64,000 nucleotides of DNA from Halorubrum salinum (GTDB lineage Archaea; Halobacteriota; Halobacteria; Halobacteriales; Haloferacaceae): assembly GCF_024494575.1 (NCBI RefSeq), contig NZ_JANHDO010000002.1, forward strand, positions 310,001 to 374,000, read 5' to 3'. Positions within the stretch are counted from its first letter, which is position 1, and each line of letters starts with the position of its first letter. The position numbers were made by a program, and so were the translations under genes. This document shows positions 49,137-50,978 of the stretch, one piece after another. The notes beneath the pieces are model-generated. The model was not told where the DNA came from. It made no database searches and worked only from the letters and a program-made list of their open reading frames with translations.

Positions 49137-49314
49137 TCACCGATGCTCGTCGATCCACTCACACCACGCGTGGAAGTCGTCGGCTCCGCACTGGTCGGCA
49201 ATCGACTGCAGCGTTCCGGTCGGGATTTCGTCTTCTGACGCCATAGGAACAGTCACAATTCGGACTTCGTCCGTGTCTGGTGATTCATACCGCATTTTCA
49301 GGTGACTACCTGAA
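49137..49314 (-). pseudogene. hicA: hicA toxin gene, 3' fragment (interrupted)
   Basis: The minus-strand frame ends at 49137 and reads SGSHLKMRYESPDTDEVRIV, then TVPMASEDEIPTGTLQSIAD and a C-terminal EWIDEHR. This is the C-terminal two-thirds of a HicA mRNA interferase, with the catalytic His in GSH. Upstream the frame enters the TnpB element at about 49315. Joining 49314 to 50899 gives an in-frame 85-codon hicA. The ORF could start at an internal Met, but it would lack the catalytic His. Confidence 0.85.
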
Positions 49315-49383
49315 TCAAGGAGAGAGTCCCGCCGTTCACGGCGGGCGTGAATCCGACAACTGCCGAACAACCGCCGACGACAC

Positions 49384-49518
49384 TCAGTCCGGGGTATCCA
49401 AGTTCTCCGCGGCGTGGAGCAACATCCCCTTCCACGTCAGCCCGTTGTGCCGCTTGATCGCCCGTAACCGCTCGTACTGTTCGTCATCCTCTATCTCGAT
49501 TTGGACCGTCGTTGCCAT
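49384..49518 (-). CDS. Small protein inside the TnpB element
   Basis: A 44-residue protein starting MATTVQIEIEDDEQYERLRA and ending AAENLDTPD. It begins with a beta strand and then two helices, the layout of ribbon-helix-helix or VapB-type antitoxin-like proteins. It is divergent from tnpB with 53 bases between the starts, within the element ends. It may regulate tnpB or stabilise the element; both are inference. I recall such small genes next to some haloarchaeal tnpBs. Confidence 0.75.
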   Translation of the reverse strand: MATTVQIEIEDDEQYERLRAIKRHNGLTWKGMLLHAAENLDTPD

Positions 49519-49571
49519 GCCATCATTGGCTAACCATTGGTTTATCAATGTACCGCACGAACCAGTAGTTG

Positions 49572-50846
49572 ATGAAGCGGACCAACACATTCGACGTGGT
49601 TCCTCAGTCTGACGAGGACGAGGAGTTGCTTCGACGCCTGTTGGACGCTTCTGCCGCTCTCTGGAACGAAATCAACTACGAGCGCCGCGAACACTACGCC
49701 GACCCCGACGCGGACGTGTGGGAAATCAGCGAGTATCGCGGCCGGTACGGCGAGACGCTCGGCGCGTCCACGGTTCAGCAAATCGAACGGAAGAACCGTG
49801 AAGCGTGGCGGTCGTTCTTCGCGCTCAAGAAGAAGGACGAAGCCAACGGCAAGCCCGGATACTGGGGCAACGCCGAGGACGGTCGCGAACTCCGAACGTA
49901 CATCCGCAACACGTCGTACACCGTCGAGTGGGGCGAATACTCCCGACTCGAAATTCTCGTCGGAAAAGACCTGAAAGACGAGTACGGGTTGGGACACCGC
50001 GAACGTCTCCGGCTCGAAGTCCGGGGCGAACCCAATTGGAAAGAGTACGACAAGCAGGGACGGTTAGAGTTGTTCTGGGACGAGAACGCACAATCATTCA
50101 GGGCCTTTCAGCCAGTCACGATCGACAATTCTCGGCTGGCACACCCACTGGCGGACGAAACCGCCGCGCTGGATATTGGTGCGAACAACCTCGTCGCCTG
50201 TTCGACTTCGACCGGCACCCAACTGCTGTACGAGGGGCGCGACCTGTTCGAGCGGTTCCGCGAGACGACGCGAGAAATCGCCCGGCTTCAATCGCTCTTG
50301 GACGACGGCCGGTACAGCAGTCACCGGATACGCTCGCTGTACCGACGACGGACGCGCCGCCGCGACCACGCCCAAGACGCGCTTGCCCGCGACCTCATCG
50401 AACGGTTGCACGGCGAGGGCATCTCCACGGTGTACGTCGGCGCGTTGACGGACGTACTCGACACGCACTGGTCGGTCGAAGCGAACGCCAAGACACACAA
50501 CTTCTGGGCGTTCCGGCAGTTCATCGACCGACTCGCGTGTACTGCCGAGGAGTACGGTATCTCGGTGGAGGTCCGCTCGGAAGCGTGGACCAGCCAAGAG
50601 TGTCCGCAGTGTGGGTCCACGGACCGGACGACGCGCCATCGCGACACGTTGACGTGTCCATGCGGCTTCGAGGGACACGCAGACCTCACCGCAAGCGAGA
50701 CGTTCCTGAGACGGCAGACCGACGTAGCACGGCCGATGGCACGGCCTGTGCGCCTCAAGTGGAACGACCACGACTGGTCAGAGCTACCACGCTCTTGTTC
50801 CAACGAGGAGCGCACGAACCCGCAAGTTGCCTCCGTGGGTCGGTAA
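49572..50846 (+). CDS. tnpB: RNA-guided endonuclease TnpB family protein (element B)
   Basis: A 424-residue TnpB of a different subgroup from element A. RuvC pieces are Asp201 in AALDIGANN, VYVGALTDVLDTHW, and the zinc finger with GFEGHADLTAS. The middle motif has Gly-Ala where active TnpBs have Glu-Asp. The zinc finger has CPQC and CPCG. The ATG at 49572 is preferred to the TTG just before it. The N-terminal part (LLRRLLDASAALWNEINYERREHY) and QQIERKNREAWRSFFALKKK look like a normal TnpB wedge. Confidence 0.88.
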   Translation: MKRTNTFDVVPQSDEDEELLRRLLDASAALWNEINYERREHYADPDADVWEISEYRGRYGETLGASTVQQIERKNREAWRSFFALKKKDEANGKPGYWGNAEDGRELRTYIRNTSYTVEWGEYSRLEILVGKDLKDEYGLGHRERLRLEVRGEPNWKEYDKQGRLELFWDENAQSFRAFQPVTIDNSRLAHPLADETAALDIGANNLVACSTSTGTQLLYEGRDLFERFRETTREIARLQSLLDDGRYSSHRIRSLYRRRTRRRDHAQDALARDLIERLHGEGISTVYVGALTDVLDTHWSVEANAKTHNFWAFRQFIDRLACTAEEYGISVEVRSEAWTSQECPQCGSTDRTTRHRDTLTCPCGFEGHADLTASETFLRRQTDVARPMARPVRLKWNDHDWSELPRSCSNEERTNPQVASVGR

Positions 50847-50914
50847 GCGATACCCCCAACGCGAGGAAACCCCGGCGTTCACGCCGGGGAGGATGTCATC
50901 GACACGACCGACAC
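50847..50914 (+). ncRNA. Predicted omega-RNA 3' end and guide of element B
   Basis: After the tnpB stop, CCCCGGCG at 50870-50877 pairs with CGCCGGGG at 50882-50889, closed by TTCA, then AGGATGTCA to 50898. The stem differs in sequence from element A but keeps pairing and loop, which supports an RNA structure. The guide would be about 50899-50914, inside hicA, so the RNA should match an empty hicA allele. Confidence 0.55.
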
Positions 50915-50978
50915 GCTTGTACCCGAAGCCGTGGAGGACAGACGCAATCTCGCGCCCGGAGAAGTTCGTCCGGACCAT
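50899..50978 (-). pseudogene. hicA: hicA toxin gene, 5' fragment (interrupted)
   Basis: From the ATG at 50978 the minus strand reads MVRTNFSGREIASVLHGFGY and then KRVGRV before the TnpB element. This is the N-terminal third of HicA, up to just before the catalytic GSH. The start is one base after the hicB stop (50980-50982), so hicB and hicA were translationally coupled. The truncated frame would run into element sequence (DDILPGVNAG). Confidence 0.85.

What the first reader, a model, noticed from the sequence alone, without database searches (positions are those of the whole stretch)
49137..50978. A TnpB element has cleanly split a hicA toxin gene beside hicB
Removing 49315-50898 joins a 5' fragment (26 residues plus two bases) to a 3' fragment and gives a continuous 85-codon HicA-like frame with the catalytic GSH right after the junction. 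The fragments show no other stop or frameshift, so the insertion looks recent. The hicB antitoxin, one base upstream of hicA, is intact. Loss of the toxin while the antitoxin is kept may be neutral or may relieve a cost.
Basis: partly seen in the sequence, partly recalled or inferred. Interest (0 to 1): 0.85.

Follow-up and report, generated by a model that had tools for sequence, protein, structure and literature searches.

The report
TnpB transposon splits archaeal hicA toxin
In a salt-loving archaeon (Halorubrum), an ordinary TnpB-only transposon of the IS200/IS605 family has inserted into the toxin gene of a hicB-hicA toxin-antitoxin pair and broken it; the event is well documented here, but it is a normal kind of gene disruption.

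Summary
Intact hicA genes (83 codons, directly after hicB) from at least 14 other Halorubrum loci align edge to edge with the two hicA pieces of the window.

The element is 49310-50899 (1590 bp, ambiguous by one base), inserted 3' of a CTAC motif (49306-49309) without target duplication. The uninterrupted gene is 83 codons, not 85. About 20 other copies of the element, from Halorubrum and other haloarchaeal genera, share CTAC, the same ends and the hairpins.

The element is a TnpB-only (IS1341-type) IS200/IS605 member. TnpB keeps a D-E-D site, with the glutamate in a known alternative position (E338).

By the established TnpB rule its omega-RNA guide is now hicA sequence. Across 52 Halorubrum genomes the only exact TAM+16-nt matches are intact hicA genes of three other species. 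Cleavage itself is inferred.

hicBA is itself an acquired island: relatives lack it between gcvT and the next gene. "Recent" is supported only relative to species divergence, and no fitness benefit is shown. hicA decay recurs at other hicB loci without this element. Ordinary in kind, unusually clear in evidence.

The parts
50980..51240 (-). hicB-like antitoxin gene, 86 aa, intact (PF24113/DUF7387; called HicB by its partner and by the annotated homologue in virus SNJ2)
   Evidence: PF24113, 133 bits; 97% identical to the Halorubrum kocurii protein; SNJ2 homologue annotated HicB
50901..50978 (-). hicA 5' piece, codons 1-26
   Evidence: 96% identical to the intact genes of H. kocurii and H. cibi, one private change D17G
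49137..49310 (-). hicA 3' piece, codons 27-83 and stop, starting with GSH (base 49310 could equally be 50900)
   Evidence: PF07927 35.5 bits; adjacent to the 5' piece in intact relatives
49306..49309 (+). CTAC motif (TAM) immediately 5' of the element, present in the intact hicA of several relatives
49310..50899 (+). TnpB-only IS200/IS605 (IS1341-type) element, 1590 bp
49328..49345 (+). left-end hairpin CCCGCCG-TTCA-CGGCGGG
   Evidence: compensatory changes across copies
49384..49518 (-). small divergent ORF, 44 aa, conserved in most element copies, function unknown
49569..50846 (+). tnpB, 425 codons from TTG (ATG at 49572); D202, E338 (alternative position), D372
50870..50889 (+). right-end hairpin CCCCGGCG-TTCA-CGCCGGGG within the conserved 3' (presumed omega-RNA) region that runs to 50899
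50900..50915 (+). predicted 16-nt guide, antisense to hicA codons 21-26
   Evidence: position rule of PMC8612924; exact TAM+guide matches only in hicA of three other Halorubrum species
49078..51424 (.). region absent from the same chromosomal site in relatives (between gcvT and the next gene): hicBA island plus the element; edges approximate
   Evidence: closest genome, L112, has about 40 bp here

Best explanation
A TnpB-only IS200/IS605 (IS1341-type) element inserted 3' of a CTAC motif on the strand opposite hicA, between codons 26 and 27. It split hicA into two pieces that are very probably non-functional and left hicB intact. Shown: the two pieces, the uninterrupted gene in relatives, the junctions, the motif, the element ends and hairpins, an intact tnpB with three acidic residues, and the flanking guide sequence. 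Inferred: insertion as single-stranded DNA by a TnpA acting in trans; processing of the tnpB 3' transcript to an omega-RNA whose 16-nt guide is hicA; TnpB cutting empty hicA sites that carry CTAC and so retaining the element; loss of HicA activity, because each piece lacks part of a small single-domain protein.
For: Intact 83-aa hicA next to hicB at 14 or more Halorubrum loci; the pieces meet without gap or overlap. The 3' piece passes the HicA cut-off. CTAC and the same ends flank every complete copy examined, and the intact hicA of four named species (H. kocurii, cibi, alkaliphilum, coriense) carries CTAC at the site. Both terminal hairpins have compensatory changes. TnpB passes the NCBIfam cut-off; D202 and D372 are kept in 63 of 63 aligned rows and E338 in 62 of 63, and E338 fits the published alternative-glutamate spacing, six residues before the first zinc-finger cysteine (PMC10711439). 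Exact TAM+guide in 52 genomes: only hicA of three other species.
Against: No tnpA lies in the element. The one TnpA of the genome belongs to an IS605 element with a different left-end context, TTGAT by eye, so the mobilising enzyme is unidentified. No same-species strain without the element was available, and the empty gene in relatives stands at other chromosomal sites. No RNA or cleavage data. The structure model of TnpB was poor (pLDDT 61.9), so the active site rests on sequence alone.
Confidence: 0.94

Rival explanations
1. The whole island (hicB, broken hicA and element) arrived already disrupted, so the insertion happened in another host and says nothing about selection in this species. 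This is a rival about the order of events, not about the split itself.
For: Relatives lack the entire island at this site. Related hicBA pairs stand at other sites and in virus SNJ2. The nearest element copy found by DNA is on a Haloterrigena plasmid (87.7%), against 84.6% for the nearest Halorubrum copy.
Against: No disrupted hicA with this element was found in 52 Halorubrum genomes or among 40 named hicB loci.
Confidence: 0.3
2. TnpB here is nuclease-dead and has been exapted as an RNA-guided repressor (TldR-like) of hicA-bearing loci.
For: The canonical RuvC-II glutamate is replaced by glycine.
Against: An invariant glutamate stands at the known alternative position in 62 of 63 rows; both transposon ends are kept; the clade is multi-copy and widespread like a mobile element.
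Confidence: 0.03
3. The loss of hicA was selected because it removes the cost of the toxin (adaptive rather than neutral).
For: hicA is truncated or missing beside hicB at other loci (L081, L088, L091), so loss recurs.
Against: hicB is not under any visibly different constraint (2 silent and 2 replacement private changes); a mobile element with a 4-base target motif hits genes by chance; no phenotype data.
Confidence: 0.15

Closest known systems
IS200/IS605 family, IS1341-type (TnpB-only) elements of haloarchaea
   Same: insertion next to a short fixed motif without duplication, terminal hairpins, tnpB, conserved 3' RNA region running to the right end
   Different: only that this copy lies inside a toxin gene; it also carries the small divergent ORF found in most copies
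ISDra2 TnpB and its right-end RNA (PMC8612924)
   Same: motif at the left end, guide taken from the flank beyond the right end, RuvC D-E-D plus zinc finger
   Different: CTAC instead of TTGAT; glutamate in the alternative position; no tnpA in the element; activity not tested
HicAB toxin-antitoxin pairs (PF07927 HicA), e.g. the annotated pair of archaeal virus SNJ2
   Same: hicB directly upstream of hicA; HicA profile; G-S-H in HicA
   Different: hicA here is interrupted

Membership tests
IS200/IS605 (IS1341-type) | tnpB with RuvC and zinc-finger domains | tested here: met
   PF01385, PF07282 and NF040570 over their cut-offs
IS200/IS605 (IS1341-type) | insertion 3' of a fixed short motif, no target duplication, subterminal hairpins | tested here: met
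   CTAC in all complete copies, no duplication against intact hicA, compensatory changes in hairpins
IS200/IS605 (IS1341-type) | no tnpA inside the element | tested here: met
   the only Y1 transposase of the genome is on C6
IS200/IS605 (IS1341-type) | omega-RNA made from the 3' end and guided cleavage | not testable with these tools
   sequence conservation and position only
TnpB with alternative RuvC-II glutamate (Ealt) | no canonical E; E six residues before the first zinc-finger Cys | tested here: met
   G291, E338, C345 against the definition in PMC10711439
HicA toxin (PF07927) | profile match and G-S-H motif | tested here: met
   3' piece 35.5 bits against a cut-off of 27; intact relatives read VGSHLK
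HicA toxin (PF07927) | RNase activity neutralised by HicB | not testable with these tools
   no experiment
HicB antitoxin | HicB-type profile and hicA partner | tested here: inconclusive
   PF24113 (DUF7387) strong, UPF0150 only E=0.2; hicA partner in relatives and the SNJ2 annotation support it
TldR (nuclease-dead TnpB-like regulator) | loss of RuvC catalytic residues and of transposon ends | tested here: not met
   alternative E kept in the clade; both ends present
pro-Fanzor | DPG at RuvC-I plus Ealt | tested here: not met
   the window reads DIG at RuvC-I

The most novel reading that the evidence does not exclude
Because its guide is now hicA, the inserted TnpB may act as an RNA-guided guard that cuts incoming hicBA cassettes of related species (those with CTAC at the site), so that the cell keeps the antitoxin and excludes the toxin gene.
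Probability: 0.06. Interest if true: 0.7.

Novelty: new member of a known kind. Interest (0 to 1): 0.3.

Why it matters
It is a clean natural insertion whose empty site survives in related species. That fixes the motif (CTAC) and the exact ends of an element whose TnpB clade was found in 107 of 145 sampled Halobacteria genomes, and it predicts the guide and its targets to the base. This makes TnpB retention testable in a haloarchaeon. The broken toxin gene itself is an ordinary disruption.

Tried and rejected
The first HicA 3' query was in a wrong frame; redone. The AlphaFold model of TnpB was poor and was not used. The missing canonical Glu first suggested a dead nuclease; the swap (E291 with P338 in the autonomous TnpB, G291 with E338 here) and the published Ealt definition removed that. 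The genome's own TnpA was considered as the mobilising enzyme; its element's left end looks different by eye, so this is left open. Direct repeats at the island edges were sought; only short chance-like matches were found. Orphan or decayed pairs elsewhere were tested as further insertions of this element: no convincing TnpB match at those loci. No paper describing this case was found; the PNAS 2023 TnpB census, recalled from memory, was not held. One script draft held a line that would have concatenated the two pieces as a comparison row; it stopped on an error before that line and was rewritten without it.

Full report
What is there. The window lies in a 2.7-Mb genome whose genus-mates are Halorubrum. 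On the minus strand hicB (50980-51240) is followed after one base by the start of hicA (50978). Residues 1-26 of HicA are read, then the frame leaves hicA; the remainder of hicA, starting GSH, lies at 49137-49310. Between them, on the plus strand, is a tnpB of 425 codons. The 3' piece alone passes the Pfam HicA cut-off, and tnpB passes the NCBIfam TnpB cut-off.

Is it a split gene? Yes. hicB of this type occurs in many Halorubrum genomes, and 14 or more loci carry an intact 83-codon hicA directly after it. The two window pieces match that gene edge to edge (organisms named). The two pieces were kept apart in all searches.

Exact junctions. Intact genes of H. kocurii and H. cibi read, on the tnpB strand, AGGTGACTACCGACACGACC. 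The window has AGGTGACTAC before the element, which begins C, and CGACACGACC after it, behind GTCAT. The element is therefore 49310-50899, or one base to the right, with no duplication. About 20 other copies from several genera have CTAC at the left (one copy is cut by its contig end) and end in GGATGTCAT (GTCAC in one), after which the next base varies (two of its rows repeat the same copies). Plasmid copies of other genera match from about 49306 to 50900.

What the element is. Hairpins at both ends show pair-preserving changes on both sides, and the last 100 bases before the right end are almost invariant, as expected if the tnpB 3' end is also an omega-RNA. There is no tnpA in the element. 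The genome has one Y1 transposase, in an IS605 element with a different left-end context. The element is single-copy in this genome at the DNA level. Its TnpB clade occurs in 107 of 145 sampled Halobacteria genomes. So it is an IS1341-type element.

TnpB active site. The canonical RuvC-II glutamate is glycine in 62 of 63 aligned rows, while a glutamate stands six residues before the first zinc-finger cysteine in the same 62 rows. The one exception, the autonomous IS605 TnpB of the same genome, has the reverse arrangement (canonical E, proline at the other position). This fits the published Ealt arrangement (PMC10711439). Nuclease activity is therefore plausible, but not shown.

How it most likely works. 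By the ISDra2 rule (PMC8612924), the guide is the about 16 nt beyond the right end, here antisense hicA. The TAM plus 16 nt occurs exactly in only three of 52 Halorubrum genomes, each time in an intact hicA; the backward control pattern gave none. If active, TnpB would cut empty hicA sites bearing CTAC and so keep the element in place. Many relatives lack CTAC at this site and would be spared. This is inference from an established mechanism, not a result.

History. In relatives, gcvT and the next gene are neighbours with neither hicBA nor the element between them; the closest genome has about 40 bp where the window has about 2.3 kb. hicBA is thus itself acquired, consistent with its varying sites and with virus SNJ2 carrying a related pair. 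Whether the element entered before or after hicBA reached this site cannot be told. The hicA pieces carry only two private changes, D17G and one silent change: recent against species divergence, but no date. D17G alters an invariant residue and may mark relaxed constraint; one change is not proof.

Function of the loss. Nothing here tests a benefit. Truncated or missing hicA beside hicB recurs at L081, L088 and L091, without a convincing TnpB match at those loci.

Verdict. Observation confirmed with corrected boundaries; interpretation supported as to the split; known kind of event; modest interest as a precise natural test case for an archaeal TnpB.

Noticed in passing
window 49384-49518 (-): A 44-aa ORF divergent from tnpB is conserved in most copies of the element and sometimes found away from these copies; ribbon-helix-helix-like by eye only, function unknown.
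   Followed up: partly
L018, L081, L088, L091, L099: Other haloarchaeal loci where hicA is truncated or missing beside hicB, or hicB itself is truncated: recurrent decay of this pair.
   Followed up: partly
window about 23100-24620: A second TnpB gene (L107) with the alternative glutamate and a similar right end (GGAGGATGTCA).
   Followed up: no
G000 C6:11329-12797 (L211): An autonomous IS605 with tnpA and tnpB (canonical Glu), apparently inserted after TTGAT by eye.
   Followed up: partly
L209 (virus SNJ2) 2414-2923: A hicB-hicA pair in an archaeal pleolipovirus, HicB 79% identical to the window's.
   Followed up: no
G000 C5:13542-13718 (L063): A second HicA in the same genome over the Pfam cut-off, 63% identical to the 3' piece.
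   Followed up: no
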